Shown here piece by piece: positions 4,877-58,300 of a stretch of 64,000 bases of DNA. The stretch comes from a virus. Both the position numbers and the translations under genes were made by a program. The notes below the pieces were generated by a model that did no database searches, was not told where the DNA came from, and saw only the letters and a program-made list of their open reading frames with translations. The stretch spans positions 1-64,000 of IMG/VR virus record IMGVR_UViG_3300029787_000010. One strand, 5' to 3'. The first letter of the stretch is position 1. Each line of letters begins with the position of its first letter.

Positions 4877-4913
4877 GATTTCAACTTCTCTTTATAAAGA
4901 ATCAAAACAATAG
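4877..4913 (+). promoter_or_regulatory. TATA promoter, copy 1 of a repeated 37-bp element
   Basis: The element contains TTCAACTT, then CTTTATAAAGAATCAAAACA. It is identical over 37 bp to the element at 14513 and closely similar to the one at 18895. CTTTATAAAG is a good archaeal TATA box. Initiation is expected near 4920, giving a leader of about 18 nt that holds the GGAGG of the gene at 4938. Confidence 0.8.
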
Positions 4914-4937
4914 TAAACCAAACTGGAGGACAAACAT

Positions 4938-14512: not shown

Positions 14513-14549
14513 GATTTCAACTTCTCTTTATAAAGAATCAAAACAATAG
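14513..14549 (+). promoter_or_regulatory. TATA promoter, copy 2 of the repeated 37-bp element
   Basis: Identical over 37 bp to 4877-4913. The TATA box CTTTATAAAG sits at 14526-14535. Initiation about 25 nt downstream would fall near 14557, only a few nucleotides before the ATG at 14563, so the first gene may be translated from a leaderless or nearly leaderless transcript. Confidence 0.8.
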
Positions 14550-17393: not shown

Positions 17394-17832
17394 GTCATCA
17401 TATCTCTTGAGAGTCTGCAAACTATGTGGTGGTTGTCTGCTTGCCGAAACGAAGTTCCGTCACCGTGTGGGGGAATACCGAGCGAGCACAGGGGGTACCA
17501 AGCACTGGTGCCTGTCCTGTCAACGCAATGTCCCAACCTTGCTCAAAGAGTCCTACACGCCTTGGGAACAACATGACAAGAACTTACACACGGGAGAGGA
17601 ATTGGAAGGTAAGCATAGTTGGATTCATTCTGCTTTCATTGACAAAGGCGAGACAACGGGGAAGTTCTACTTTTACCTTGACGGCGTTGAAGAAATCCCC
17701 GACCCTTGGGTGCGGGAGTTGGTTCGGCGATACAAGGAGACAAAGGAACAGTTGTCCGAAATGACGAACAGGTACAACGACCATGTTTCCACTGTGATGA
17801 ATTGGAGTTTTGGAGGAGAGAAGAATGAATGA
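17386..17832 (+). CDS. zinc-binding protein, 148 aa
   Basis: I chose ATG 17386 behind GGGAGGGAAAG, within the end of the previous gene; the open frame extends upstream without a start signal. CKLCGGC at residues 11-17 and CLSC at 42-45 form a ribbon with a basic loop. The C-terminal half is helical (WVRELVRRYKETKEQL). This looks like a recombination- or transcription-type zinc ribbon, but no homologue is recognised. Confidence 0.6.
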   Translation: MSESSYLLRVCKLCGGCLLAETKFRHRVGEYRASTGGTKHWCLSCQRNVPTLLKESYTPWEQHDKNLHTGEELEGKHSWIHSAFIDKGETTGKFYFYLDGVEEIPDPWVRELVRRYKETKEQLSEMTNRYNDHVSTVMNWSFGGEKNE

Positions 17833-18091
17833 CGACGAATGGTGCACAAACCTACTGGGCCTACTGACGATGCTTGACGAACTGATTCGCCTTTACGGCG
17901 ACGACGAAGAAGCACTCAAGCGTGTCGTAGGTAAATTCATTTGGCGTGTGACGCAGGCGAACCTGTCGTATGAAACACAGCCGGACTGGTCGGATGTTGG
18001 CACCTTTTTCAAGTTCGCTGGCGAGCCGGGCATCAGTCACTTGGTGGCCGAGTTTCGTCGCCGGCCTCTACCCACTGAGGCCGATGTGTGA
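17825..18091 (+). CDS. hypothetical helical protein, 88 aa; last gene of the early block
   Basis: Starts at 17825 behind GGAGGAGAGAAG. Helical N-terminal half (LLGLLTMLDELIRLYG) and acidic turn, then a mixed segment ending in Arg-Arg-Arg. Its last 24 nt overlap the tail of the convergent kinase-like gene on the minus strand. Function unknown. Confidence 0.55.
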   Translation: MNDDEWCTNLLGLLTMLDELIRLYGDDEEALKRVVGKFIWRVTQANLSYETQPDWSDVGTFFKFAGEPGISHLVAEFRRRPLPTEADV

Positions 18092-18865
18092 GAACATGCG
18101 GTTGATGGCTCGCTCTCTTTGAGCCAGCCTATTCTGTAAGGCATCGTAGCCCCTTCCACTGTGGAAATCGTGATATGAATCTTCAATGGGCTCTACGAAC
18201 TTATCAAACGGCGTCCGGTCAATTCGTCTTTGAAGTAAAGACAAATCAATTTCGGGTACATCAAAGTCAACACCGGGGTGTCTGCGACCAGTCCCCCGCT
18301 TTGGTTGAAAGTGACCCGCATCGCCAAAGTCGGGGTCATGAATGAGCACAGGCTTGGGGTCCCGAGGTGAACCTATCCCCGGCTTCCTCAATTGATACCT
18401 GTTCATCAAACCACTGGCACTGTGGTGCTCCATCCAGTTCTGTGGTTTGAGGTCAGTCAAGTTCATCGCTTCAAGAAGTGGCATTTTGTCATATACGCTT
18501 TGTTGAATGATTCTTCCTCTCGCTGTGTCTTCATTCATCCCTAAAGGACTGCCGTCAATTGCTCTACCACGGGGCTGCTGCGACAAAATTGGCAGACTCA
18601 TATCCCCTAACTCTACCGGCAATGACATCCTTTGTTCAATGGGCTGCTGCCCTGCGAATAGTCCAATAGGCATTTGACTGAGTAGTTGGTTGTAGTACAT
18701 CGCATCCAACTGAGAGGGGTTTTTGTCAAGGTCGCTGACCTTCACCACATCGGGGTTTCCTGTTTGACCAAACACCACTTGGTTCATCCCTGCTCCAATC
18801 TGTACTCCTTTGGCTGGCTGAAAGGCCGCCTTCAATATGGACCACGCTATATCAACCGGGTCCAT
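18068..18865 (-). CDS. minimal protein-kinase-like protein
   Basis: The 265-residue product carries the ordered hallmarks of the eukaryotic-like protein kinase fold: a glycine-rich loop GAGMNQVVFG at 24-33, the ATP-anchoring Lys in VVKV (K42), a catalytic loop LTDLKPQNW (D138, K140, N143) and a magnesium-binding DPDFGD (D179, F180, G181). Spacing from K42 to the DFG is about 137 residues, near normal. The part after the DFG is short (about 84 residues), so the C-lobe is reduced. It would phosphorylate Ser/Thr of a host or viral protein; targets are unknown. This is the only minus-strand gene among 39 kb of plus-strand genes, and no Shine-Dalgarno precedes its ATG. Confidence 0.7.
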   Translation of the reverse strand: MDPVDIAWSILKAAFQPAKGVQIGAGMNQVVFGQTGNPDVVKVSDLDKNPSQLDAMYYNQLLSQMPIGLFAGQQPIEQRMSLPVELGDMSLPILSQQPRGRAIDGSPLGMNEDTARGRIIQQSVYDKMPLLEAMNLTDLKPQNWMEHHSASGLMNRYQLRKPGIGSPRDPKPVLIHDPDFGDAGHFQPKRGTGRRHPGVDFDVPEIDLSLLQRRIDRTPFDKFVEPIEDSYHDFHSGRGYDALQNRLAQRERAINRMFSHIGLSG

Positions 18866-18886
18866 GTACGAGCCAAGTGCTCGTAC
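18866..18886. repeat. dyad GTACGAG-N7-CTCGTAC abutting the kinase start codon
   Basis: A perfect 7-bp inverted repeat with a 7-nt centre lies directly 5' of the kinase ATG. On DNA it is a candidate operator for a dimeric repressor; on the kinase mRNA it would form a hairpin against the start codon. Confidence 0.5.
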
Positions 18887-18894
18887 GAGATAAC

Positions 18895-18932
18895 CATTTC
18901 CTATTTCTCTTTAAAAAGAATCAAAACAATAG
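18895..18932 (+). promoter_or_regulatory. TATA promoter, copy 3 (variant) of the repeated element
   Basis: Matches copies 1 and 2 from TTTCTCTTTA through AAAGAATCAAAACA and TAG, with CTTTAAAAAG in place of CTTTATAAAG. Plus-strand initiation is expected near 18941. The box reads CTTTTTAAAG on the other strand, about 45 nt from the kinase ATG, so it could serve both directions. Confidence 0.7.
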
Positions 18933-18945
18933 TCTACTGGGTTTC

Positions 18946-19001: not shown

Positions 19002-20555
19002 ATGAATATGCAGACCGGGACGACAGTGATTGGAAGAGTGACAGAGAGCAGAAAAGACAGGGTGTTTATGGACTACCCGTCCAATGCTGGGGTGAAGAAC
19101 CTCAACATTGAGCGACAGGACATTGAACGCTTTGAATCGTTAGACGACGGCCGAGTGGCCATCACCTTGAGTGGTGCCACAGAAGCCCAACTCTACGGCA
19201 GCAATGCCCCGCTGATTGTCACAGCACAAGACATTGCCATCGTTGAAGCGATGGAATATGGAGAACAAATACCAAACGGAGAGAACAACATGAACGAAGA
19301 ACACAACGACGAGGTGCCAAACTTTGGCACAGAAGAGCGACTGGTGATGGAAGTTGGAGCAGATGGACAGGTGTCGGTGAACGCCGCCGGTCCCTTTGAC
19401 GACTTCCTTTACGCAGGAAACAGAAAGAACAAGGCGACGGCCGACTGGGACTTCCAGCCTACTGAGAAAATGGGCTTTGTCCTGTACGAAGACGAACGAA
19501 GCGGGCAAACTTCGGCGGCGAAGATTGTGGACAACGATGGCAAGCCCATCGTGAAGCACATTTTCAACCCGAACTACGCCAACGAGAAGCGGCCCCTTGG
19601 TGCCCACCTTGGGATGTTCAGCCCGACCTACTACGCCATGCCGTATGCACGGGGCTTCCGTCCCATCTTGGACATGTGTGCCAAAAACGGATGGCCAGCA
19701 AAGGTCTTTGCTTACAGCGAAGGTAAGAACGCTCGCCTTGATGTAGATGTCACCAGCAGTGTTGACTGGGATGCAGCCGCACAGAACAAACTTGGTAGCC
19801 GATGGCAGAACCTTGGCTTTGTGAAAGAGGGCGATTATCGTGTTGGCTTCTCCATCTACAACAGTTTGGACGGGTCCTCATCATTCAAGGTCGCCGCCAT
19901 CGCTCAGCGACTGGAGTGCACTAACGGCATGGTTGTTGGCAAATCACAAACCCTGCTCAAGTTGCGACACACCAAGGGCGTTATGGAGAATTACGACTTC
20001 AACTCACTCGCTGACAAACTTGAACAAGTCATGATGTCAGCCGCTGAGGAACTGATTGAGGTTGAAGCCATGCGCAACATCACCGTCAGCGACGAAGCCT
20101 TTGAGCGACTGATGACGCTGAGTGAGAAAGCCGGCCTCATTACCAAGCCGACTGTTCACCGTGATGACAAGGGAGAAATCACCCACCTTAGCCGTGGCCA
20201 CATGTGGCGAGTCATGGGACAAGGGTGGACCAACCCTGCCAACACATGGGTCCGTGTCCAAGGTGATGACCAACACACCCTCTACCATGTCTACAACATC
20301 CTTACCGGAGCGGTGACTCACAAGCCAATCTACCAAGACAACGAGCACTACCGCAACAAACCACTGGAAGGTAAGACCCTCGGCTTCAACGCCATGGACA
20401 AGAAACTCACTGATACACACACCATGCTCCGCAAGGTCAGCGACAGTGTTATCACTGCAATCGGCGGCGACCCCAATGCGCTGCTTGACCAGTCCGAGTC
20501 AGTCCTTGAGGACCAACTCGCCTCAGTGCCACTCTTCTCGGAGGTAATCTACTGA
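19002..20555 (+). CDS. DUF932-like protein, 517 aa
   Basis: First gene of promoter copy 3. An N-terminal 60 residues form a small beta domain, and residues 60-120 are an acidic linker. From about 190 to the end the sequence follows the DUF932 pattern: YAMPYARGF, a strand-rich middle, LECTNGMVVG (about 305), RHTKG, and near 430 LYHVYNILTGAVTH. DUF932 proteins are widespread in plasmids and phages and are of unknown function, often highly expressed early. The protein is 100-200 residues longer than typical members because of the N-terminal extension. An alternative start lies two codons downstream. Confidence 0.6.
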   Translation: MNMQTGTTVIGRVTESRKDRVFMDYPSNAGVKNLNIERQDIERFESLDDGRVAITLSGATEAQLYGSNAPLIVTAQDIAIVEAMEYGEQIPNGENNMNEEHNDEVPNFGTEERLVMEVGADGQVSVNAAGPFDDFLYAGNRKNKATADWDFQPTEKMGFVLYEDERSGQTSAAKIVDNDGKPIVKHIFNPNYANEKRPLGAHLGMFSPTYYAMPYARGFRPILDMCAKNGWPAKVFAYSEGKNARLDVDVTSSVDWDAAAQNKLGSRWQNLGFVKEGDYRVGFSIYNSLDGSSSFKVAAIAQRLECTNGMVVGKSQTLLKLRHTKGVMENYDFNSLADKLEQVMMSAAEELIEVEAMRNITVSDEAFERLMTLSEKAGLITKPTVHRDDKGEITHLSRGHMWRVMGQGWTNPANTWVRVQGDDQHTLYHVYNILTGAVTHKPIYQDNEHYRNKPLEGKTLGFNAMDKKLTDTHTMLRKVSDSVITAIGGDPNALLDQSESVLEDQLASVPLFSEVIY

Positions 20556-37656: not shown

Positions 37657-39153
37657 ATGACAAATGAAAAGAAACAAACAGCACAAAGCATGAACATCCG
37701 AGCAGCAAAGGCCATTGCCGATACGGTGCGGTCCACCTTGGGCCCAGCGGGTATGGACAAAATGATGGTGGATGGCGGTGGCAATGTCATCGTCACCAAC
37801 GATGGGGCTACCATCCTACAGCAACTTGACATCAGTCACCCCGGTGCGAAAATGATTGTGGAAGCAGCAAACACTCAAGAAAGCATGTGCTACGACGGCA
37901 CGACGACGACCACGATTTTGGCTGGCTCTTTGCTCGCCAACACAGAAGGCTTGTTCAACAAGGGTTTGCACCCGAATGTGGTATGCCGTGGTTACAGGCA
38001 GGCTGCCCAGTGGGCGGTGGAAGCCATCACTGAGACAGCACAGGGTAGTAGCAAAGACTTGCTGAATGTAGCCAAGACAGCCATCACGGGTAAGTCGTTG
38101 GAAAGCAGCATGGACCATGTGTCCGGACTGTGTGTTGAGGCAGTGGAGCAAGCCAACGGGGACATCAAGCGCATCAATGTAGTGTGCCAACCGGGTGCTT
38201 CATTGGAGGATTCATATTGCTTTAACGGGGTCGTTATCAACACGACCTTCATGATGCCGAGCATGAGCAAGGTGCCTGCAAAGAACATCATCCTGCTCAA
38301 CACAGGGCTGTCGTCAAAGAAGGATGACAGTGTCCAAGTCAATGTGCAGAATGTTGGCGACTTCAAGAACTACCAGCAGTACGCCACCAAGGATGTGTGG
38401 GAGACGAAGGTAGAAGCACTCACAGAACTACTCCCCGAAGGCGGGGCAGTGTTCTGCCGCGACAGTGTGAACGAACTCGTGGCCGCTCTCTTGTCTAAGA
38501 AAGGCATCAGTGTAGCACACCGTGTTCCACCTACTACCCTTGACGCCATGTCGGCGCTACTGGACACACCCGTCGCTCACACTGTAGAGGACATTGGCGG
38601 AGTAGCGCAGCCGACTGAGTTAGAACAGCGCACGATTGGTGACATGGATTACATCGTCGTGGCCGGCGAAGGTAATGTCACAACACTCGTTCTGCGAGGA
38701 GCCACCCGACAGACCCTTGACGAAACAGAGCGTGGATTTGACGACGCCATCGGCGTGGTCTGCTTGGCCTTCAACAGTGACCAAATCGTAACGGGCGGCG
38801 GCTCGTCCTACATCCATGCTGCGCTCGCTCTACGCAACCGTGCGGCCGAGATTGGCGGTCGGGCGCAAATGGCCATTGAAGCCTTTGCAGACGCCTTGGA
38901 AGCGATTCCTGCGACCATCGCTGAGAACGCTGGCTTTGACCCGTTGGACACGGTGCTGGCTCTACGCAGCGCCCACCTCCTTGGCAAGAAGGACTTCGGT
39001 CCGAACATTGAGGAAGGCGGTGTCTGTTCTATGATTGGGCTGAATGTGTACGAACCATTGGCCTTGGTGAAGCAGGCGATTCAGTCAGCAAGCGAAGTCA
39101 GCATCAGCATCCTGCGCATTGACGACATCATCGGGAAGCGTTCCGAAGAGTGA
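37657..39153 (+). CDS. ths: group II chaperonin (thermosome)
   Basis: Folds proteins in an ATP-driven double ring with a built-in lid. The 498-residue subunit has LGPAGMDKMMVD and VTNDGATIL (about 30-55), CYDGTTTTTILAG (ATP site, Asp kept), the intermediate/apical region with a lid-protrusion segment (about 215-245), RGATRQTLDETERGFDDAI (near 353), VTGGGSSYIH and SILRIDDII at the C-terminus. It is slightly shorter than cellular thermosomes (about 545), mainly at the termini; the Gly/Met-rich tail is absent. I chose ATG 37657 behind GGAGAGG. It is the last plus-strand gene of the replication block, overlapping the HMG-CoA-lyase-like gene tail-to-tail by 26 bp. Giant virion proteins are plausible clients. 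Confidence 0.93.
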   Translation: MTNEKKQTAQSMNIRAAKAIADTVRSTLGPAGMDKMMVDGGGNVIVTNDGATILQQLDISHPGAKMIVEAANTQESMCYDGTTTTTILAGSLLANTEGLFNKGLHPNVVCRGYRQAAQWAVEAITETAQGSSKDLLNVAKTAITGKSLESSMDHVSGLCVEAVEQANGDIKRINVVCQPGASLEDSYCFNGVVINTTFMMPSMSKVPAKNIILLNTGLSSKKDDSVQVNVQNVGDFKNYQQYATKDVWETKVEALTELLPEGGAVFCRDSVNELVAALLSKKGISVAHRVPPTTLDAMSALLDTPVAHTVEDIGGVAQPTELEQRTIGDMDYIVVAGEGNVTTLVLRGATRQTLDETERGFDDAIGVVCLAFNSDQIVTGGGSSYIHAALALRNRAAEIGGRAQMAIEAFADALEAIPATIAENAGFDPLDTVLALRSAHLLGKKDFGPNIEEGGVCSMIGLNVYEPLALVKQAIQSASEVSISILRIDDIIGKRSEE

Positions 39154-39955
39154 TTTGCCCAGCGATGTGAGAGGCAACCTTGAGGGCTTCTTCATCCACC
39201 CCTGTGGTGAAGCCCCAAGCGTGCAGGTGAGACACCAGTGTTTCGGTGGATAGGTTAGCCCCGCTGTTGGCAGCAAACGGGCACCCACCAAGACCACCGA
39301 TACTTGAATCAATCTCGTAAATGCCGTTCATTAACGCAGCCCGAACCAACTCAAGTGCACGGTCCTCCTCACCATTGTGATGAAGATGAAGTGCTGCTCG
39401 CATACCCTCGTTCTTGGCTAACTCAGCCAATTCAGCGACCTCTTTACGAGTTCCTGCTCCGACTGTATCAGCGAAGACGATAGTGCCACCGAACATTTTG
39501 GCATCGCGGATGCAAGAAAGAAGTGTACTCATGCGAGGCACCCCGCTCCAAGGCGAACCGAAGGCCATACTAATGTAAACTCGGACATTCTCTTTGGGCA
39601 CTTTGTCCATGAAAGTTTTGTACATCAGTACAATCTCACTACGGGTCTTACCCATGTTCTTCATGTTGAAGTCCTCGCACGGCGAGAACACGATGTTGAA
39701 CTTCTCAACACCTGTCGCCACAGCACGCTCGTAACCACGCTTGTTCATGACCAGTGCACTACCACGGTCAAACACTTCCTCAGCATCAGCCATTTGCGGC
39801 ACAAGGCGAGGGTGAGCAAAACTTACTTCCTCTATAGACTGCAAGCCTGCGTCGTATAGGCTTGCGATTAACTGTCGCTTGGTTGCTGTTTCAACAGGCT
39901 GTTTCAGTGCTTGGAGTCCATCACGAGGACCGACCTCGTAGATGGAGATGTTCAC
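39128..39955 (-). CDS. hmgL: HMG-CoA lyase-like aldolase (DRE-TIM family)
   Basis: HMG-CoA lyase cleaves 3-hydroxy-3-methylglutaryl-CoA to acetoacetate and acetyl-CoA. The 275-residue product keeps the known active-site residues: GPRDGLQ (R11, D12), E42, LHLH (H190, H192, metal ligands), GGLGGCPF (C225, catalytic loop) and N234. The TIM-barrel pattern is intact, and the length is only slightly below cellular enzymes (about 300). The start is GTG 39955 in a GTGA overlap behind GGAGG. It is the last gene of the late strand and follows a small membrane protein. A related DRE-TIM lyase or aldolase substrate cannot be excluded. Confidence 0.85.
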   Translation of the reverse strand: MNISIYEVGPRDGLQALKQPVETATKRQLIASLYDAGLQSIEEVSFAHPRLVPQMADAEEVFDRGSALVMNKRGYERAVATGVEKFNIVFSPCEDFNMKNMGKTRSEIVLMYKTFMDKVPKENVRVYISMAFGSPWSGVPRMSTLLSCIRDAKMFGGTIVFADTVGAGTRKEVAELAELAKNEGMRAALHLHHNGEEDRALELVRAALMNGIYEIDSSIGGLGGCPFAANSGANLSTETLVSHLHAWGFTTGVDEEALKVASHIAGQITLRNASR

Positions 39956-43308: not shown

Positions 43309-46300
43309 TCACTCCGTACTGTGGTCACCCGTGTTGAAGTTCGTATCGCCGTCTGCGCCCTTGGGGTGCAACGATTGACTGTAGCGAGGCTCTACCGAAA
43401 AGTCTTCCTTTCGTGCAGCGTCGCTGCGGAAATGTTCCAAGGTGTTCTCACTCATGACAATGCGGGCCACTGGATTGGTAATGTCAGTCTTGTCATAGCC
43501 CGTCACATCCACACCCAAAATTTTGGGTCCGTTGCTGTCCGAAGCAGTGACACTCGTGTTGGGAGCGATGCTGTAGACCGGTGAATATGGAGGACTGCTG
43601 GGCGTACCTGTCCGTGCGGACGGGGCATCACTGGTGTAGATACCGTACTTACCTCCACCTGTAGCGAGGTAGAAGTTGCTGCCGTCTTGAGGGCTGCCCG
43701 TCTTGAGCATACGCTTACCACGGAACAACTGGGCATGATGCTTGTCCAGCGTGCGCACAGGGCGCACAAGGAACTCAATGCGACTGTCGGAGACATTGGT
43801 CTTGCCGTCAGTCGGGTCATGGTTAGCGTCTTGATATGGATTGGATGTAGAAGCAGTGTTAGCCTTGCCCCAACCCTCGTCGGAAAGTGCACCTTGTCGC
43901 ACTGACCAATCCATGATGTAGGTGCCACCAAGACTCCACATGCTGTGAGCATCCGAGATTTTCAAAATACCCTTGACAGGCTGGGCTGACCAACTGAGGG
44001 CTGTCATGTCCAAGTGACCAAGAGTCTGTGAGCCGACATCCTTTGCACCACGCAGCGTGATTCGCTGACCGACGCTTCGGTTGCTGTGTAGACTATGTGC
44101 CTCAGTTGACATAATGATGTACTCTTGACTTTCACCGTCGTTGAGTTCACTCATTGTGTCCACATCAAGTCCTATACGCACACCGTCTGCACCTACAGGG
44201 TCAGTCATATCTGTGTTAGCACTGACTGTTTCAATGCTCTCACTGACCATGGCCTCGGGCTTGAGAAGGCCTTCTTCGCTGTCCAGTTCCAACCTCGCGC
44301 TGATACCACGCTCAATCTCCTCCGCTTGAAGCACATCGTTGCGTGGACGATTGAGTCCTTTACCAATAGTCGGCTCACTTGTCGGCTGTGAGAGGACGAG
44401 GCCGGTTGGCTCAATTGATTCGGACACATCCATTAGCAGACTTTCATTGAAATGCGTGGGCCAGCGCACACCACGACCGTCTCCACGGTCGCCGACACGC
44501 ATGGAGTTAGCCGGATTGAACCAATCCACCGTACCCATGTCTGTAGCATCGTTGTTGACTGTGTTGCTGTTGCCGCTTTGACGGTCGTCGTAGGATGCAA
44601 ACAAACCTCGGTTGGCAGGTCGGTCATTACGACCGCCGTCTGTGTAAGCGTTCTCCGGGTCCCACGCAGGACTGATGCCGAAGCCACGGACAGGGAACCG
44701 GCGAACATCCTCACCACGAGTGTTGCCCCACCAGTCTACAAGGTAGTAACGATGAGCGTTAGCAAGTTCGTAAATCTCCTTGCCAGCAGCATCTCCTGCG
44801 TACATTTTCCGGACAGTAGACGGGTTGCGTAGAACACGCACAGGGCAGCCAAACGGCTTTGTCATTCGGCGACCGTCGCTGTAGCGAACCTGTCGCCCGA
44901 GTTGGTCTTCGTTGAACAACGCACTGATTTGCGTCAGTCGTTCAAGAATACCCGCGTAAGACGCTGGGTAATCTGTACCGGCCTTCCAGCCGTCCGTCTT
45001 GCTATCCTGTTGTACAAACGGCCCGTGGTAGTAACCAAGCAATGCGTTGCTGTTAGCCACTTCCAAGTAGCCCCGAACATACGGTGACCAACGAGGGCGA
45101 TTCATTGGTTGACGCACAGCCATGCGGTAGCCAAAGCAGTAGTTACGAGCATCGTCGGAATCGCTGGTCATTTGTGCATAGGTACGCTCATCTACACCAC
45201 TATTGTCACGGAAACTTACACAGTCCACTCCGAACAACTTGCCACCCCAACCAATCAGCGCCTCAAGGAATCCGTCAAGGCGACTGGAACCAGCGCCGCC
45301 ACGAGAGCCGCCGGGCCAATAGCCTGCAAAGTTGAACTTGTCCGAGCCGATTGTCCCACCTTGATGTGAAAGTGCCGATGTGGCGTCCAGTTGACTGGCA
45401 GTGAAAATGGCTCCAGTGCCACCTACGGAACTGGTGGTAGAAATGCTGATTTCCATTATTGGGAAACGGTTAGTGGTGCTGGCTCCGTCTACTCCGTTGA
45501 CCGTCGCTGGACTTGGATTGTTGGACATTTTGCTGTCATCAATGACACCCCAAAGTGTTGAAACATAGAGTTTGGTCCCATCGTCACTCCAGTCAATACC
45601 TGAAACCCAAGGGGTGGTATCACTGCCGGACTGAGAAACCGAAGCAGATTTGTTAAGGAAGTAAGTACGCAAGTCAAGTGTCACATCCAAACTGGAAGTA
45701 GAGGTGTCATAAGGTGTAGACAAAGTGTACTCTCGTACATAGCCGGACGCTCCACTCAGCCACATTTTAGTCCCGTCCGAGTTGAACAATATGTCGCTGA
45801 TTGTACTTGCGCTGATTGACGCTGATGTACCTTCGGTATCGCCACTGGCCACGATGTAGGGGCTGGCAGTGGAGAATTGACGAAGAGTAGAAGCATACCC
45901 TACGAAATACTTGGTACCGTCTCCGTTCCAAGCGGCGGCACGAATACCTGTTTGGCTTGACAAATTCTTACTACCGGTGAAAGTAAAGGTGCTTGACACA
46001 TCAAATGCGGATGCGAGTGTTGCACTTCGTATGCCGCCGCCATGGAAATCTGTGACAATCATCTTTGTGCCACTGGGGTCAATATCAAATCCGTCACAAC
46101 TGTTGAGGTCCGAATCTCCAAGGCCCGCACTCTGTTGGTCGTAAAGTCCGTCAGTATTGGCAATGTCAATTTTAGAGAAAAATACATTGTCAGTATCGTA
46201 ATCGTTATTGTTACCACGGTTAGAAACAATGATGTCGTCCCCAACTACGCGCATACCTGTCAACCATGTAGTCGTGGCATGAATTTGTTGGAAGTTGATA

Positions 46301-49300
46301 CCTTTGCGGTTAGCCGTCGTCCCTACTGAATCGGACACTGCTTGTAGTGAATATGAAATGGTTTCTTCATAGGGCGGCTTCAACCAGTTCATGCCAAGTG
46401 CAAACGGACCTTTGGAAGCAGCGTAAAAGAAATCATTGTAATGGACTGTTTCATAGTGCTCGGGGATGTTATTCAGTCCTTTCTTGAGTACAGGGCTGTC
46501 CACATCACCTGCTTTTGTGTAGAATGAACGGGAACCATCGTCCGAATAGTAGGTGAATGGTCGTCCGAGATTGGGGTGCCACATACACAGGAACGCATCG
46601 GGAAGATGAAGACTGTTTGTATCACGAGTACCAGTGTAAGTTTGTAAGAGGTTACGAGTGACTATGCTCTTATTTGAATCAGTGTAGATTTCATCAGCGA
46701 ACCGGTTAGCATAAGGCCCGGTCAATTTGACGATAGTGCCCGAACCACTGACAGTCAAGTTAGTCCAAAAGTTCGGAGTGATGTTGACCACTCCAGCAAA
46801 TTGCACAGGGGAGCCAAGTGTCGCGTGAGCCAATGTGCCCACACGGTGCGTGTAAGTAGCCAATTGCCTTTCTCCATTGGAGTCTATATATTCCAATTGC
46901 TCTCCGTAATACGGGTCTACTGGGAACAACTCAGCGTTAGTCACTGTGATTGTTTTAGCAGAATCGTCTTTCGCAGTAGCACGGGTGTTGGGATTGAGTG
47001 AGCGTATTCGGAAATGCTCAGCGTAGATGTCGGGGTAGCAAGTGGGGTAGCCTGCCAATGTAATCTGTGCACCAACAGCGCCGAATGTAGCCCTGTTCAA
47101 TTGATAGTAATGGTCGGGAGTGTGCCATTCTAAATGACGGAAGTATGTCGCTGCTGCCGCTCTTGCGCCGTCTTTGTGCAACTGTGCCCACCAAGGTACA
47201 GTGATGGTGAAGCCGGGCGTGGTTTCTACGAACATGTTCGGGTGGTATGGTAGCGAACGACGACTGAATGCGGGTGAAGCAGACTCCTCTACGCCCAAGG
47301 GATTGTAGAGAGCAAGAGGTGGAAGGTTGGTGAATTGACTACCTGCATCGGGCTCAATGTCCAACATCAGTTCGTTAAGAAGTATTTCACAACCACGCAC
47401 ATCGGCCATGGTAGCCTCAGCAAGAACAAGTGTGTAGCCGCCGTCTCCACTCGTAGAGTGCTCAATAGCGATGACCGTGTTGACCTGTTGACCCGTGAGT
47501 TCAATAACAGACCCATCGGGCACATTGTTAGCAGGCCCGTTCCGGTGATAGCCATTGAATTGTTGCTTAAACAAATTTGGCTGAATAACAATTTGGTAAG
47601 CACCTACTTCCATAGGGTCGGGGAAGTGATTGTTTTGAGTGTAAGTTCCAGCAGCCTCCAGCACAATGCTATGGCCACCTGTCTTATTGGCATCTATAGA
47701 AGCAGCAATACCGTAGCCTTCAAACTTCAATTTTGTCTCTGTGAGCAAGGTGAATGCGCCGCCGTGGATGTCCGATGGAGAAACGGATGCAGTTGGGCCG
47801 GAGAACCAAATCAAGGGGTCACGATGAGGGCGCTTTCCTTCGTCACTGAACTCTTCTTCAACTGAAATAACCGATGCTGCGGAAGCGGCCCTGTGCAAAT
47901 CATACAGTCGTTGATACGCAGGATGAGCGTAATGGCCCGGCATCATTGCCATGGTGGCGTTGACATAATGGTGACCCATGCGAGGGATTGGCATCGGTGT
48001 CAATTTAGGTGTACCCAATTGTGTCATTGGAGTGGTACCGACATTTGGCCAATCAATGGTAGGCATGTCCGGGCTGGCACCGCTGTACTCTGCATGGTCA
48101 CGCAGACGGCGAGCGGCAAAGAATCGGGTGCTACCGGCTGGCATGTAGTACGATGGGACAACCTTGAGTCCAGTCTTCCCAGCCACGAATGACGAGAAGT
48201 CGGGACTGTAGACGACGCCTGTGAACTTGTTTGTCCCCACCCCCGTATACGAAGCGATGACGCCTTTATCGGTCGTCGGGTCATAAACGCGCAGGAAATA
48301 CCGACCGCTACTTTGCTCGTTTGAATCTGTCCATGTAGCCGCTTCGGGTGTAGACCCGACGGTGATTTCTGTACCGCTGAAACTGGAGTAGGTCAGTTCG
48401 TCAACATCGTACCGATGCGTCATGGTCGCACCCATTTTTGTCACATGGAAGTGCAGGGCACGGTCGTGTGGCTCATAGGCTGTCTTGAGAGAAGCGTTAT
48501 CCGTATGTTGCTGCCAGCCCTGCGTTGAACTGTTAGGGAACGCAAGTCGGTCATTACTTACATCTGACCCATCTTGAGAAAGGTGTTCCCACCCATTGTT
48601 CTCCCAAGTTGGCCAAAGGCGAGGACCGGTGTAGGTATCAGCAAAGGTGTCCTTGACAGCCCCTTCTCCCTGCAACGGGTGCATAATACCGCCAGCCCCC
48701 ATCGTTTCGGTTTGGTAGCCCTGTATTCGGTCAAATCCGGGTCGCACGATGATGTTGCCCGGAATCTCGTTCGCAAGTGGTAGACGGATGCGCATGTTTG
48801 GTGAGACACCGTCACCGGCAAGCGAAGGGGCCAAGCCCTCAAGGTCCCGGTCGCTGACATGTCGGAAGTCATAGATGATGGTACCCAGTGGACTACCTCC
48901 TTCTAACCGGTGCTCTTGCCCTGTATCGTCAACGACCTGTAAACTTCGGAACTGCAATTCTTCGTTGGGTATGTTGAGTGCACTTTCTACAAGTGGATAG
49001 TTCAGTTCCAATTGCGGATGGCTCAATTCTTGCGCTTGGATAAGTGGCATCATGGCTTTATTTGTGGTTTCAAAAGAAAACCGATTGTTACCAAGGACTT
49101 TTTCACCCACTGTTTTGTAAGTTGAGGAGTCTTTGCGCACGACCCATGGTGTCATGCCCAGTCCACGAGCGTTGCTGGCAGGAAGCGTGAGGTTGCCACC
49201 GTCCATTCGCTTCCAAACGACATGTTCTTCAAGGAAATTACGAGCAGCCTGTCGCCCGTTGTAATACTTGTACAGACCTTCACTTGTGCTGTAATACTGT

Positions 49301-52300
49301 ATTTTGGTTGTCACACCCGTACACTCAACTCCATAGGTTGCACTGTCTTCGTGATTGGCGCGTGCCGGTACGATTGACTTATCCCAAAACAAATCACCTG
49401 TCGGACTGTGACAGGCATCGCCGCGACTAATGTGAGAAGCGGCTGTGACTCGTGAATGCCAGTAGGCTTCCGTGCCGACCGCTGGATAGGAGGTGGCTTT
49501 TTGTGGGAAAGAAGTTGTTGTATTGACCATAGTAGCCTCAATGTGAGGCCCGGCAGTAGCGTGTGAAACATAGCGGTCTTTGTTGTGTACCTTACCAGTG
49601 TTCCAAGCAACCGTGCCAGCATTAGCAAGCGTGGCACTTCGTTTCACATCCAACCAGTCCCCCATGGCAATAATGCCGTCTCGGTCGGTCTTTGCGATGA
49701 GTGGCAATTCGCTTTCGTGCGTCACAGCAATCAAGTGTCGGGAAGCAAGACCATGAACGCAACTTTCCGATGACAAAGTAGTGATGGTGTCTATAGAGCC
49801 ATGAGGGGAAACGCTGCCTATACAAGACTCTGCACTACCGTATGGAGAGAACCCTAAGAATGGGTGCCATGCACCGAGTCCGGCAGCAAAGGTGGAGGTA
49901 GTGCCTACTTCCAATGAGTTGAGATATGAGTATCGTTCACCTGCCCAACCTACTGCGCCAATCGGTTTCGTGCGGTCAACGGCGTCCATAAGTCCGTTGA
50001 AGTGCACTTGTGTACGCTCATTGATTGATTCATTGGAATTGTCGTAGCGATGCGTACCAGCCTTGGTCCACACATACACTTTGACATTTGGACCATTGAA
50101 TGTTGCAGAAGGTATGGCTGCCTTTGAAACTGGGTTGACAATGTTACTGTTGGAGGTAATCGTATTGACACCAAGCGTAAAAGTAGCGCCTGTGTACGAA
50201 ACATAGGGTGCAAACCCACTGACTGCTCCATCGCTAACTCTTAGCCAGCCGTATTGAGGTAGTGTGGTAGGAATGGCAGATGTCACTGTAAGGGTCGCCG
50301 CAGTTGGTCCGGAAGCATGTTCAGTGTAACCTGTGTTTTGAACTGCATCCAGTGTCACCCAACCGTAGCGGTCTTGCTTTGCAGCGTGCTGCATAGACGG
50401 TAAGAAGGTTCCACCAATCGCTTTCAATGGTTCAGTACCGGGGAAAGTGTTGATGGATGTAGCGACAACAGCCGCTAACTCTTCTGCATTTTGGCAACGC
50501 GTGGCATCAATGATGAAAATGTTATCAGTGTGGTCCATAGCGGCTTCGGAACCGTAAGTGCCAAGGTATGCTTTGGCCAAAGCAGAAGCAACACGGAACA
50601 CCGACGGGTTTTGTGATGTGCCCGAACCTGTTGCCAATCGCTGGGTGGATTTAGGATGCTTGATGTTACGGATGATATGGTTGTCCAAGAAATGCCCACC
50701 GGGATGGTAGCCGCCGTCCATGTGCCAAACACAGCCACTGGCATGCGTTGTCGGCAAAGAAGCGTGCCCCATCGCCACACCGGCAACATTGGTGAAAACT
50801 TCATTCATCAAATGAGCGTTTGCTGGAGGACTTGATGCTCCTAATTGACTTTGATAATAGCGCCCTTCTCCTGCACTTTGACCGTAATAAGTGGCGTTGG
50901 GTGAACCTTTAGTCGGCTCCCAATTTAAAATGAAATTGAAACCTTGGACATTGGTCTTTTGGTATTCTTTTGCAGGAGGTAACCTTGCTCCGAAGCCTTG
51001 GATAGAAGCATCTCCGTGCGTGATGATGTTTGGAAGAAGAGAAAGACCCGACACTGGGTGATTTGTGGGTACAGCACTGTAGCCGTTACCTGTTTCAATG
51101 ATGTTTGAAAGTTGGGGCTCAAAGGAAGCAAAGTTGTGAGGCACGGCTTGACCCGGTCCAAAGACGAGATAGGTGGTAGAATCGTCCGCTTGTGGCGTAG
51201 AGTCATAACGGGCATGAGGATGTCCAAAGCGTATGACAATGGGGCTTGGACGAGCGCAATTCACAGTGAATCCTCCTCCAGCATAAGTGACACCAGTAGA
51301 TGATGCATTGGTGTTGTTCCCCGCATCCAAGTCCGGACTTAGCATAGCGTCTTGATTGAAGAACGGCATGTGATTGCGACCGTTATGTTGGTTGAGGTAA
51401 GGTGTTCCGGGGAACATAGCCAGCATAGCGTTAGCGTCAAGTAATGCGTACGAACCTGCAACCTCACCTACATTTTGCATTCCACTCGCACCTGTTGGTC
51501 CATCGGCGTACGGATGCGTGTAAAACTCCGAGTAGTCATTTTCTGTACCGTCGTTGATGTCTACGGTCACGCCCGAGAAACCGCCGCCAAAGTACAGAGG
51601 TACCCACCGGTCGGGACTGGGCTTACCCCCACGGAAGTAAAGGAAAGGCTCCCCGTGTTTACTTCCCTTCGTACGAATGCCTTGCAGGTATCTACTCTTC
51701 GCAATGCTGTTTTGCTTTACCAGTATGTCTCCTGCCACAGCAGTTGTCAAAAAGTCGTCGGAATGAGAAACTATGGTTGCGTGGTAATGAGAAGTTGAGC
51801 CAGCGGTGCTTTGCACACGAGCCCAGTTTTCTTCACCTAACCAAAGTACAACTTGGTTCCCCCATGAGTTACTGTCATTTGAGGCCGGCGTTAATGCCAA
51901 GAACAGTAACTCGTTATTGCTATTATCTGTTTCAATGTGAGGAGTACCAGTGTTGATAGTGGCGATTTCAATCATTGGTGAGTTGACCATGGGTATGATT
52001 CGGTCGCCGGGCAACCTGTAGAAGTTATCTCCACGCAAATTTTGACGCCACAAATCAGTGCTGACAATGTTGTTTTGACTGTTGACCAAAACTGGAGTAG
52101 CCGTGTTAGCGTTTGGACCTCGGAACTTGGTGGTAATCGTCAACAGCGTCTTTGGTAAGTAGCCACAATCAATGCGCATACTGTCGTTGATTTGACTTGC
52201 ACTCAAATCAGCATCAGCGACAGAGGCTTGAATACCCAAGTCGGGGGTCAATGAAGACTCAAAGAGATGGTTAAGTGGTACGACACGGTCTTTGGAACTG

Positions 52301-55300
52301 TAGGCTTTGATTCGCACAGCGCCGGGCTTTACGCCCCACTCACCCAAAGTGCGCCCGTCGGGAGCGTAGAGTCCAGTGCAATCAAAGGTAGTGGCTGCCA
52401 CATCGTCTGTGTTGGGGTCATCCATGTTGATGGCAAAGTTGACGGCCGCTGCCATCACTTCGTCTGTTAAAACACAAGTGAAATTGATACGAGGGCTCAT
52501 GATACGAGTCACTTTTCCACTTTGATAATTGGACCCTATATTCTTGACACCATACAAAAAGTGCTCATTGGACCCGCCAATACCAGCCTTACCCTCATGT
52601 GAACGAGAAGTATAGTAGTAGACTTCACCATTGTTGCCCGAGCCCATGTCATTCAACTGAATCAGCCCACTGTCCGGCAGTCCGAGATAACCAAGAATAT
52701 CTGTGTGCGTGAACGAACCACCATTGTCGTATGGCGAAGCGAGCGTGAACTTCAAGTTGTCATTTGAGCCGTCCTTTTCAACGGAGATGGAAATGCCCAC
52801 AGCAGGAGAATTGTAGTTGTTCCAAAGGTTGCCCTTGAACGACGACTTCGTCCCTGCTGTATAACGCCCGTTGACATCACCTTTCCCGGCCATGTGCTTA
52901 CCGACAGTGAATCCGCCCTGCCCAACATCTCGGTCATCAAAGTAAATGACAATTTCATCGTCAAGTGTTTCGGGGAGATGTGTCAAGTCGCCTGCAAAAG
53001 CCTCGCCAAACTGCCTGTACACGAAGCGTACAGTGTGAGACTTACCACGATGGTCAGCGAGTCGGATGCCGTACATTTGCCCATCACCAATTTTGTCGGG
53101 GCGTATCTCATCGTCGGGGATGTAGGAACCAGCCAACTGATTGACCAAGCCATGCTGCTTTGTCCCAATGTGCTCGTTGTCTCCGTAGATGTGGTCAAAG
53201 CGGACATTTTCCCCATCGGGACCATAACCCCAGCGACTACAATCGGGTGCCCATCCGGGTATGCCAGCCTGTGTCAATCCGCCAAAATTGATGCGACCAA
53301 TCGCCTGTGACCCTACTCGGAGTCCGTTGACGATGACTTGACCACTTGCTTTGGGCTCAAAGTTTGAATCAACAACTGTGTTAGCACTGCGCCCAGTAGC
53401 GTGCTCAGTGGTTGATTCTGTGTTGAGGGAAACGCTGCTTTGAATCTCGGGACCAAAGTCCAAGTTGTTTCGGTATTCGTCCGAAGTTTGCTCAACAGGA
53501 AGGTATTCTCGTAGCGTGGTGATGGGAGCAAACGGGCGACCGAGACGGTTAATTGGCATAGGTGCAGGGTGCATATTTTCGCCATCCTTTTCATTTGGTT
53601 GACACCAATAGTTGCGGAAGCGGCCACCATGCCCAATCAAAAATTCCGGACGATAAGGCGTCTGTGCACGGGATGCGTCTAACCACACACAGAAGTTGCG
53701 ACCGGATGCACCGGGAACCGTTGAGTGGATGACAACAGAATAGCCTTCTTTCCCATCTTCATCAGTGACAATGCGTCCCAAATGTGCTCGCATGTAGCCC
53801 ATATGACTACCACGGTCATGGCTACCAAACGCTGTGTCTTTGTTCCAAAACGGAGCAGGGTCATGAGTTGAGCCCGTAGCCGCAAAGTCAGCGCGCTGAT
53901 GTCTTGCTGCTGGGTCTTTGATACGCCCTGTGTTGACAGAAGTCTCACCCTTACCCAAATCAAACCGCTCACCTTCACCCAAATACTGGTCCGCTGGACG
54001 CCGTGCGTGAGTGCGTCCGTTCTTAGCACCTGCTTGATTGATGAGTCGGACCACCTCTTTTGCGGCTGCCTCAATATCAGTTACACCTTCTTTGACACCA
54101 ACCTCGCCTAAATCAATAACAAGGCGGCGAACGAAGTCCATGTTCGTCCAATGCGGGAGATGCTGGAGGCGGTCCTCTTCGTGAGTGGATAAATCAAGTG
54201 TAGATGAACGAATGCCCTTCATTGACAAGAATGCAGGAATGACTCTCGTCCCATCGGGGGTATCAAAGAATGTAGCCTGCTCAGTAGTGTCTTTGAGCAT
54301 TTGCTGATGCAAAGTGTTGGCCTCGGATGTATCAACCGTGGCGTCTTGAGTTCGTGGCATGATTGAACTGACTTGAGGGGTTTGCTCATGATAACCAGTT
54401 GCGTGGCTACCTATCGCTACATTTGCGTTCCAAGTGCTGTTATGCGACATTGACGCTTCTACAAATTCGGACGACGCACTGCTTGCCAAGTTCTTGTTTT
54501 GTGAGGCGAACCCTGCTGCGACATCAATTCCGGAGTTTCGCTTGTCATTGTCGTGGGCCCCGGAACCTTCGTTGTCAGTGCCAATTTTGACAGCGGCTGG
54601 ACTTGACTGAACTTGCATGTGCAAATCTTGGAACGCTATGAACTCCCGGTCATGAGCGACATCGTAAAGCAATACCCTCGCATGCTCTTCTGTAGACTGG
54701 TATGGGTCAAGGTATGCTACGACAGGTATAGCAGATGACAAACCGAGTGATTCATAATTCATCTCAATCGTTTTATTCACATGCTGTACGAAATTGCGAG
54801 CCGTTTCCAAACAAGAGTTCCCAATCAAAAAGTTCTCCAATGGTAGACTGCTACGAGGTATAGTAGCAAGGTCGCCCTCTCCACCAAGGAATCCTTCCCA
54901 CACCTCGCCTTCATTCAATGTTCCACGACTCTTGCAGAAAAGGCCTTCCGTGGCGTGAGGGTTCGTGTAGTGCATGTTCATCCACACAGTGTCACCAGCA
55001 CGCAGTCCACCCGGACAATACGGATTTGCCCAAGCCGTATTGAGGAAATAGTTGGTATTCACCTCGGGGAAAATAGATGTCGTAGTGTGCACATCTATGA
55101 GTGTGATTTCAGTCCCAACTGGAGGATTAAAGCCCGAATCAATTGAAACCAGTGCTAATGAATTACCAGTGCGAGTGTTGTAATGAGCATGTTTAAAGGC
55201 ACTTGCGGTGGTATCATAGTACCTTACACGGTAAGCATAATTGGAGTTAGCAGTTATGTCAAGAGGGAAATCCGACCCGTCTTTCAATACAAGAGTAGGA

Positions 55301-58300
55301 CTACTAAAAGAAGAAACGATGCCTTTCGCACGCTTGTTTTTGATGCGTGCCAAATGTGGGTTGATAGATGGCCCTGCTCTAAACTCAACCGCACTGACAT
55401 ACTGTTTGAGCCCATAGTCAATGTTTCCACCCTGTGTCATGGCGTTCGCTCGGTCAAAGTAGAACGAATCCCGACCCTCATAACCTGCACTGGAGACTAA
55501 GGGGTTGTCAGCCACGCTTTGGTAATTGAGGTTTTCATTGTCAAGCGGTGGCATGACTTGCATGCCCACTTGAAACTCTCGTTTGAAGCCCGCTGAAAAA
55601 GCCCAGTTGTCATCAGCGGCAGCGTTCCCCGCCACTTCTAAATAGCCATTTGCAGTGTTGACCCCACTGTACATGACCCACTCACCATTAGCAGTGTACG
55701 CTGTCCGTAATCGCAAAGCGCCGTTGATGTTTGCCACAGTGACAGGTATTGATGATGGAGCGGGAAAGACCTTGTGATTCGTGACATAAACTCGGCGATT
55801 AGCAGCATCATATTCAGCACTGACAGTTGTGCCTTCTCGGTGGGTTTTGTCTACGACTGAAACAGAATAAGCACTGTGTAAGGCAGGGTCTTCCGGCGAT
55901 GTGCTCGTCGGTCGCCTCCCTACCGGATTCGGTGACCAAGAAGGAGCGGTATATGTAGCATCCAAATGCAACTTCATACTGTTGTCCGGTCCAACCAAAG
56001 CGTTGAAAAATTGGTCATGGAATAATGGAATCTCAACCATAGCACGAGTGCTGGCATACTGCGTGCCCAGTTGATAATCATGCTGAACGCTGTTCAATGA
56101 TTGGAACATACGGTCGTTAATTGTTGTACCATCGTGCACAACAGAACCCTCGTCAAACTTGTTATCCACATGTAAGTTATTGCCTACTGATATGCCAACA
56201 GCCGTTTTCCAAGCCGCAAAAGAATCCAATTCTCTTCCGTCAAAGTCCACGAAAGTGCCCAAGCCTCGTTGACCTGTACTTGAAGTAAAGGTAAATGCAG
56301 TTCCTGTCTTTGATGAATATGTAGCGTAAGCAAAAGCATTATCGGTACCAGTATCAGTGGAGACTGGTTGCTTGAAGTAAATACGCCCATTTTGAGGGAA
56401 GCAGTATGTGCCCCACGATGCCAAGTCAGTGGCGGCGTTGTTTAACGGAACAACAGTGATAGTGGTTGAGCCAAGTGCACTCACTTTAGTTACGCAATCT
56501 CGTCGCAGCGACCAGCCAAGGCGTGAAACAGCACTGGGACTAAAGGTGGGCTTTGTGTTGACAGCCCCTTGACCGGGACCGCCCATGGTCATGGTGACGA
56601 CAGGGGCACCGGGCATAATCTCCTTGACAACAAACGAGTCGGGCGCACCATCGCCTTTGACATTGACGGAGTTGGACAGTGCGTCAGCCACTAACCCATG
56701 TGCTCGCAAAGTAATGTCTTGTCCGTTCATGGACAACTGGAAATCCAATACTTTCCCACGGGACATGACATATTGTACAGCGACTTTATTGGGCGTTGTT
56801 GAGTCTTCCTCAAGCGTCAGCATTTTTGACAGTTGGTTGAAACGAGTGCGGTCATTGGGTTGAACAATAAGTCGTACACTTGCTCCTTGGCCACGATGAC
56901 TGACAATGTCAAACACTTCATTGATAGGAGTGCCTTGATTGCTGTTGCTACGAGATTGGCGTATGGGTTGGTAGAACAGTTCTTCTCTGTGAACAATCGC
57001 CGCTGTGCTTCCCGAAGAAATGGTGATACTGGTCGCTGATAATGCTGAAATCTCACCCAAATTTTGACCATGTAAACTGTAAAGCGGAACACCAACAGCG
57101 AACACAGTAGTAGCATCAACGCCACTGACGGTAAAGTTAGTAGTAGATGCCGCATAGCCACCTGCGTTATTGACGAGGACGCCTGTGCGGACACGACGAC
57201 CATGAGCAAACTTTGCTTTGAAATTACCATTGGAGTCAACCTCCGAACCAAGGTCTTCTACTTCGGACGGGGTTACAATCAATTTATGGAAGTAGGACGG
57301 ACGAGCGTTATCATCGTAGAACGCAGTGGGTATGATACTTGGTGCACTTTGTGGACTGTCCGATGAGTGAGACGGCAGGTAGTTTTTAGGTGATTTTGTT
57401 TCATCCAAAGCCCCTTCATGCAGCGTTCCTTCTGTGTCATCACCGATTAAGTCGCCGTCTTCAAAGTAAAAATCCGATGTTGCTCCAAACTCAATGACAC
57501 CACCGGGAGCGTAGAGAACAGCAGTGCCGGCTGCAATGTCCGTATGCATGATGTCCAGCACTCGTGTGCCCGAAGTCACCTCTACGCTGGCCTTGGGCAC
57601 GGTCTTGTTGACAATCAGTGCGCTGCCGTCAAGTGTTGTCCGTACAATAGCACCAGTCACTGCGGCTGTTTGGAAGGCTGAGGTGGGTGCCGAAGAAAAG
57701 GTAAGAGTGGCAGGTGAATGACTGATAGTCACAGTGATGGACGATGCTCCTGCAACTTCGGAGCCAATGAATACCTTGTCAGCCGTCGTTGTTCCTGTGT
57801 CCTTACCAAACGCTTTCGTGCTTTGTAAAGTGATGACATTGCTGCTGTAGTTTGCTGCCAAGCGACCTGTAGCAGCGTACTGCAAGCCCGTGCCACCGAA
57901 GTCAATCGCTTCGTAGTGAACTTGTACAAAGGGTGCATAATCGTGAGTGGCCAGTGTTGGGAGTTTAAGGATGGCAATACGAGGCTCCGACGAAGGTGTA
58001 AGGTGACGAGTATGCTCAGTTCCTGTCGGGTCCGTGTCCTGTAGACCTTTGAGTGCAAACGGCTCTGCATCAAATCCTGTGCCCCCAATAGCCAGTAGAC
58101 CACGCTTTGTGTCATCAATGCCAGCCATTCCATTTTCTACGACCTGTGTAGGGCTTGAAGTAAAGGTAGCGTGGCTAACTGAGAAATCACCAACTTCGTC
58201 ATGGAACGCTACTTCCGAGCCAGCCACGACGACATCTTTCAACTGACCATAGCGACCTGTAAAGGTGGCTTCCATAATTTGAGCAACGGCGTCTACTGAT

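What the first reader, a model, noticed from the sequence alone, without database searches (positions are those of the whole stretch)
18068..18865. Minimal eukaryotic-like protein kinase encoded alone on the opposite strand
The product has, in order, a glycine-rich loop (residues 24-33), Lys42, a D-L-K-P-Q-N catalytic loop (D138, N143) and a DFG (179-181), all visible in the sequence. The C-lobe after the DFG is only about 84 residues, far below a usual kinase. It is the only minus-strand gene in the first 39 kb, has no Shine-Dalgarno, and its start is covered by a perfect dyad. This suggests a separately regulated effector that could rewire host signalling.
Basis: partly seen in the sequence, partly recalled or inferred. 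Interest (0 to 1): 0.75.

Follow-up and report, generated by a model that had tools for sequence, protein, structure and literature searches.

The report
Tagged viral kinase, probably packaged cargo
A virus of marine archaea carries a stripped-down protein kinase whose first 13 amino acids are a tag shared with more than a hundred otherwise unrelated proteins of the same virus group, which suggests that these viruses pack a swappable set of enzymes into their particles and inject them into the host.

Summary
The ORF is real and is a kinase. Seventeen orthologues from magrovirus-type contigs keep G26, K42, Q97, D138, N143 and D177. AlphaFold on an orthologue gives pLDDT 89, pTM 0.87, and Foldseek returns kinases. 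The C-lobe is truncated. The start-site dyad is not conserved.

The larger result was not in the finding. Residues 1-13 (MDPVDIAWSILKA) are a detachable tag, consensus PMDxAWxLLK. In 11 related records it was found 63 times (1.8 expected), mostly at N-termini, also between domains and at C-termini, on otherwise unrelated proteins (ADP-ribosyltransferase, HD hydrolase, GNAT, peptidase-like, second kinase family). A DNA form matched at least 119 viral stretches, 117 sharing proteins with magroviruses, against 5 chance-like hits in 257 Gb of cellular genomes. Tagged genes run with the capsid gene (52 of 54), which explains the lone minus-strand kinase. Between two 97% identical viruses the kinase body is swapped right behind the tag.

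Best reading: a capsid-targeting tag, like T4's CTS, on an injected effector kinase. Packaging and activity are inferred.

The parts
18068..18865 (-). Tagged minimal kinase ORF, 265 aa
   Evidence: ORF and translation; 17 family members; fold of an orthologue
18827..18865 (-). N-terminal tag, residues 1-13, MDPVDIAWSILKA
   Evidence: Shared with otherwise unrelated proteins of this and related viruses; low-confidence detached helix in the orthologue model
18767..18796 (-). Glycine-rich loop, residues 24-33
   Evidence: G26 invariant, G24 15/17; loop between first two strands of the model
18740..18742 (-). K42, strand-3 lysine
   Evidence: 17/17
18575..18577 (-). Q97 in last strand of the N-lobe
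   Evidence: 17/17; strand 88-94 holds the equivalent Q93 of L040
18437..18454 (-). Catalytic loop D138-L-K-P-Q-N143
   Evidence: D138 and N143 17/17, K140 14/17
18326..18337 (-). Metal-binding D177 with P178, D179, F180
   Evidence: D177 and F180 17/17, D179 2/17
18866..18886 (.). Perfect dyad before the start codon, not conserved
   Evidence: broken in L001, no general fold signal
19002..20555 (+). Divergent conserved neighbour, 517 aa, the synteny marker for the kinase
17810..18091 (+). Conserved convergent neighbour whose 3' end overlaps the kinase gene end by 24 bp

Best explanation
The protein is a minimal protein kinase carried as cargo by a magrovirus, a tailed virus of Poseidoniales archaea. 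Its 13-residue N-terminus is a capsid-targeting tag: a short amphipathic helix of consensus PMDxAWxLLK that docks tagged proteins in the growing head, probably at the scaffold, and may be cut after the Lys by the head maturation protease. The kinase domain leaves the particle with the DNA at the next infection and phosphorylates a host target early, much as the packaged ADP-ribosyltransferase Alt of phage T4 modifies host proteins. Shown here: the ORF, the kinase fold in an orthologue, conserved catalytic residues, truncated C-lobe, the shared tag, its virus specificity, its co-orientation with the capsid gene, and exchange of the body behind the tag. Inferred: packaging, cleavage, injection, catalysis and host target.
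For: Kinase: G26, K42, Q97, D138, N143, D177 invariant in 17; AF2 pLDDT 89.4, pTM 0.87 for L040; Foldseek PDB best match AceK E 2.9e-4, prob 1.00, the listed rows kinase-like; viral models led by T7-type phage kinases; profile match to a second tagged kinase-like family with the tag removed, E 6.1e-7, score 54 against at most 20 in 40 column shuffles. Tag: 63 motif hits against 1.8 expected, 62 beside a start codon; at least 119 viral stretches against 5 in cellular genomes; 117 of 119 share proteins with magroviruses; 265 tagged proteins in 127 clusters; PARP, HD_4, GNAT, ParB-like domains, the same kinds as in phage-packaged polyvalent proteins; 52 of 54 motif-bearing ORFs on the capsid-gene strand; tag is a separate low-confidence helix. 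Exchange: constant leader and tag with replaced body. Precedent: T4 internal proteins share only a 10-20 residue N-terminal targeting sequence removed in maturation.
Against: No proteomics: no tagged protein has been seen in a particle. The kinase gene sits among early genes and its timing is unknown. Tag copies between domains and at C-termini are unlike T4's purely N-terminal CTS. AF2 failed on the window protein itself with 8 rows (pLDDT 36); the good model is an orthologue 37% identical. TM-scores to known kinases are only 0.2-0.4. The alpha-C Glu is not clearly conserved.
Confidence: 0.62

Rival explanations
1. The tag is mainly a processing site for the head maturation protease rather than a targeting signal: it marks where proteins and polyproteins are cut after xLLK, and packaging depends on other features.
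For: Tag copies separate domains in multidomain proteins; the protease-scaffold junction reads ATFRILKED and the capsid N-terminus SELLKAD; HK97 protease cuts after a Lys (own knowledge).
Against: Conservation extends upstream over P-M-D-x-A-W, more than a cleavage site needs; most copies are within a few residues of a start codon, where cutting would release almost nothing. Chance LLK in the capsid protein cannot be excluded.
Confidence: 0.15
2. The tag docks proteins elsewhere, for instance to the tail, a membrane or a replication compartment in the infected cell, and the kinase acts on viral proteins during assembly.
For: An amphipathic 10-residue motif usable at either end is a generic docking motif; no particle data exist.
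Against: The domain set (ART, HD, GNAT, ParB-like) is that of packaged effectors; the exchange of bodies behind the tag fits an arms race with the host.
Confidence: 0.13
3. An early, non-packaged kinase that shuts down or retunes the host from new transcription, as T7 gp0.7 does.
For: It lies in the early region, divergent from an early gene; T7-type kinases are among the nearest viral folds.
Against: It carries the tag of the late-strand class and is co-directional with the capsid gene. The repeated promoter-like element in its leader fits the early genes of the other strand better.
Confidence: 0.1
4. A kinase fold without protein kinase activity: a pseudokinase, or an enzyme acting on RNA or small molecules.
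For: Archaeal RNA kinases Ark1/ArkI and small-molecule kinases such as LicA and APH are among the structural matches; the missing C-lobe normally binds peptide substrates.
Against: All ATP and metal-binding residues are invariant, so a pseudokinase is unlikely; AceK, haspin and other protein kinases rank highest.
Confidence: 0.25

Closest known systems
T4 capsid targeting sequence (CTS) of internal proteins IPI-III and Alt
   Same: A short N-terminal segment is the only thing shared by diverse late-made proteins, one of them an ADP-ribosyltransferase
   Different: Different sequence (PMDxAWxLLK), also between domains and at C-termini, on far more kinds of protein, in an archaeal virus; packaging and cleavage not shown
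Kinase-PolyVal domains of phage polyvalent proteins (PF18762; Iyer et al. 2017, PMC5512222)
   Same: Loss of the C-lobe, intact active site, conserved Gln in the last N-lobe strand
   Different: No match to the Pfam model, no conserved Glu before strand 2, stand-alone with a tag, archaeal virus host
T7-type phage protein kinase (gp0.7 group)
   Same: Kinase fold; among the best viral structural matches
   Different: TM-score about 0.36, no sequence match, carries the tag; T7 gp0.7 is an early, non-packaged protein (own knowledge)
AceK, isocitrate dehydrogenase kinase/phosphatase
   Same: Best PDB match, probability 1.00; a D-x-D metal site there recalls the window's D177-P-D179
   Different: TM-score 0.39 at most, larger protein with other domains; D179 is not conserved in this family

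Membership tests
Protein-kinase-like fold | Two-lobed kinase fold | tested here: met
   AF2 of orthologue L040 and Foldseek; met for N-lobe and catalytic core
Protein-kinase-like fold | Gly-rich loop, strand-3 Lys, catalytic Asp, Asn, metal Asp | tested here: met
   17/17 for G26, K42, D138, N143, D177
Protein-kinase-like fold | Glu of helix C paired with the Lys | tested here: inconclusive
   Position 55 is D in 12 and E in 1 of 17; the window has D54-A55
Protein-kinase-like fold | Complete C-lobe | tested here: not met
   Only 74-103 residues after the metal Asp
Kinase-PolyVal (PF18762) | Match to the Pfam model | tested here: not met
   0 of 10 records at E 10; no Pfam match for any member
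Kinase-PolyVal (PF18762) | C-lobe lost, active site kept | tested here: met
Kinase-PolyVal (PF18762) | Conserved Gln in last N-lobe strand | tested here: met
   Q97 17/17; equivalent Q93 lies in strand 88-94 of L040
Kinase-PolyVal (PF18762) | Conserved Glu N-terminal to strand 2 | tested here: not met
   Position 25 is A, S, Q, E, V or I in alignment A8
Kinase-PolyVal (PF18762) | Insert between conserved His and Asp | not tested
   No conserved His could be assigned before D138
T4-type capsid targeting sequence | Short N-terminal segment shared by unrelated proteins | tested here: met
   127 clusters after masking; 62 of 63 hits beside a start codon
T4-type capsid targeting sequence | Genes of the late class | tested here: met
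   52 of 54 motif-bearing ORFs on the capsid-gene strand; strand only, timing not measured
T4-type capsid targeting sequence | Strictly N-terminal | tested here: not met
   69 internal and 13 C-terminal copies against 88 N-terminal
T4-type capsid targeting sequence | Removal by the prohead protease | not testable with these tools
   Tag-like sequence at the protease-scaffold junction is suggestive only
T4-type capsid targeting sequence | Presence of tagged proteins in particles | not testable with these tools
   No proteomic data at hand

The most novel reading that the evidence does not exclude
Magroviruses use one short linear motif as a general cargo address and processing site: it loads more than a hundred kinds of effector domain into the head, and copies between domains let the maturation protease release separate effectors from polyproteins. 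The kinase is one exchangeable cargo.
Probability: 0.42. Interest if true: 0.92.

Novelty: new variant of a known kind. Interest (0 to 1): 0.78.

Why it matters
Magroviruses are abundant, uncultured ocean viruses. If the tag is a packaging address, the injected arsenal of a whole virus order can be listed from sequence alone, and a portable cargo peptide becomes available. It would also mean that an archaeal host is hit at entry by a viral kinase, an ADP-ribosyltransferase and a nucleotide hydrolase. No paper in the library searched holds both 'capsid targeting sequence' and 'archaeal virus', and the magrovirus survey read mentions neither kinase nor motif; subscription papers, including the first magrovirus description, were not available.

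Tried and rejected
Single-sequence searches of Pfam, PHROGs and PDB gave nothing useful; the best PDB sequence hits were homeobox chains at E near 1. A Klebsiella phage hit (E 0.01) lies antisense to an annotated gene and shows none of the kinase motifs in frame, so it was dropped as chance. The first AF2 job, on the window protein with 8 rows, failed (pLDDT 36). PF18762 gave no match in ten records. The dyad as a conserved regulatory element was rejected. A repeated 28-bp element upstream of the kinase reads better as a promoter of early genes on the other strand and says nothing about the kinase. Host origin of the tag was rejected, since cellular genomes lack it. No relative of the kinase in GTDB contigs and none of the multi-tag protein in GenBank phages. 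Sequence profiles of the second kinase-like family also found no known family.

Full report
Setting. The window is bases 1-64000 of a 104,980-base virus record. Replication-type genes (PolB-like, RFC-like, group II chaperonin-like; my reading of the ORFs) run on the plus strand to about 39 kb; capsid-, protease-, portal- and terminase-like genes follow on the minus strand.

The gene. The ORF at 18068-18865 (-) encodes 265 aa. Its relatives were found first by sequence (87% identical) and then by position, immediately upstream of and divergent from the 517-aa neighbour. Further scans brought the set to 17 including the window. Some related contigs (L005, L011-L016) have no copy at this place; they are fragments, so absence from the virus is not shown.

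Kinase. Across the 17, G26, K42, Q97, D138, N143, D177 and F180 are invariant. The metal Asp is D177. K140 is lost in three members, which have Arg at position 142 instead, so the loop reads D-x-G-P-R-N; tyrosine kinases use the same Arg position (own knowledge). In the most compact members the distance from D138 to D177 is 17-19 residues; the window has 39 because of an insertion. Sequence searches of Pfam, PHROGs and PDB found no family. AlphaFold of the compact orthologue L040 with all 17 rows gave pLDDT 89.4 and pTM 0.87. Against the PDB the best match is AceK (E 2.9e-4, probability 1.00) and the 50 listed rows are kinase or kinase-like folds. Against viral models the first rows include T7-type phage kinases. 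TM-scores are mostly 0.2-0.4, as expected if the N-lobe and catalytic core match but the C-lobe does not. A second family of tagged proteins (L225, L138, L181) shows the same motifs; profile comparison with the tag removed gives E 6.1e-7, score 54 against a maximum of 20 in 40 column shuffles.

The tag. Searching virus records with the kinase profile returned weak hits to the N-termini of unrelated ORFs. Inspection showed that the first 13 residues, MDPVDIAWSILKA, are shared by about ten ORFs of this record, nine of them in a minus-strand cluster at 96.5-104.1 kb, outside the window. In 11 related records a simple expression for the motif gave 63 hits against 1.8 in shuffled ORFs, 62 of them beside a start codon; a broader one gave 70 against 1.1. 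The consensus is P-M-D-x-A-W-x-L-L-K. Copies also occur between domains and at C-termini: one 839-aa ORF has five copies, and one 1191-aa reading (L143:43-3615) has seven. After masking the tag, 265 tagged proteins fall into 127 clusters, 98 of them singletons; some singletons are fragments or very divergent relatives, so the number of true families is smaller. Recognisable domains are PARP-type ADP-ribosyltransferase, HD_4 hydrolase, GNAT, DUF6321 and ParB-like; an HExxH motif is visible in two more.

Specificity. Of the 119 viral stretches 117 share proteins with the magrovirus genomes.

Position. In nine records with an identified capsid gene, 52 of 54 ORFs carrying the motif lie on the capsid-gene strand; the two others are poor matches (ALSSWTSLK, VDRSWEELK). 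ORFs of 200 codons or more split 241:206. The kinase follows this rule although it sits among early genes, which is why it looks alone. Strand is a proxy: expression timing was not measured.

Exchange. Between G016 and G024 the DNA is 97% identical through the neighbour, the leader and the first 20 codons of the kinase, then unalignable, then 98% identical again about 280 bp after the stop. Similar breaks occur within the first 54 codons in two other pairs, while two further pairs align throughout. The delivery end is constant and the enzyme body is replaced or diverges fast, as expected in an arms race.

Interpretation. T4 internal proteins are diverse and share only a short N-terminal capsid targeting sequence that is cut off in maturation. 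Iyer and colleagues described phage-packaged polyvalent proteins with ART, kinase, GNAT, ParB and peptidase domains, including kinases without a C-lobe and with a conserved Gln in the last N-lobe strand; Q97 fits. The present protein fails the PF18762 model and lacks the conserved Glu before strand 2, so I do not file it there. The protease-scaffold junction GINPEATFRILKED and the capsid N-terminus GSELLKAD resemble the end of the tag, which hints that the tag is also a cleavage site; this is weak evidence.

What is shown and what is not. Shown: gene, fold at family level, residues, tag, specificity, orientation, exchange. Inferred: packaging, cleavage, injection, activity, target, timing. The dyad reported at the start is real but not conserved.

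Noticed in passing
G000 96522-104052 (same record, outside window; L054, L055, L098): Minus-strand cluster of about nine tagged ORFs beside the late genes, including one with HExxH (102743-103591).
   Followed up: yes
L143:43-3615 and G016:4968-7487: Multidomain proteins with seven and five tag copies separating domains (GNAT-like, ParB-like).
   Followed up: partly
L225:3036-3935, L138:3834-4955, L181:9524-11920: A second family of tagged kinase-like proteins; L181 has two kinase-like copies in one ORF.
   Followed up: partly
L164:2712-3191 and its 30-member cluster; G005:35347-35772: Tagged PARP-type ADP-ribosyltransferases and tagged HD_4 (RelA/SpoT-like HD) hydrolases, sometimes as tandem genes with the same tag (L169, L183).
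   Followed up: partly
window 39128-39955 (-): Gene resembling HMG-CoA lyase or isopropylmalate synthase, conserved next to tagged genes in many magroviruses; possible auxiliary metabolic gene.
   Followed up: partly
window 43309-59772 (-): Single open frame of 5487 codons in the late region, probably a giant virion protein.
   Followed up: no
window 18905-18933, 4886-4914, 14522-14549: Near-identical 28-29 bp element in three intergenic regions; probably a promoter of plus-strand early genes.
   Followed up: partly
G000 83518-84837 (outside window): ORF between portal-like and terminase-like genes contains a LAGLIDADG-like stretch (FFDADGSIYI), suggesting a homing endonuclease.
   Followed up: no
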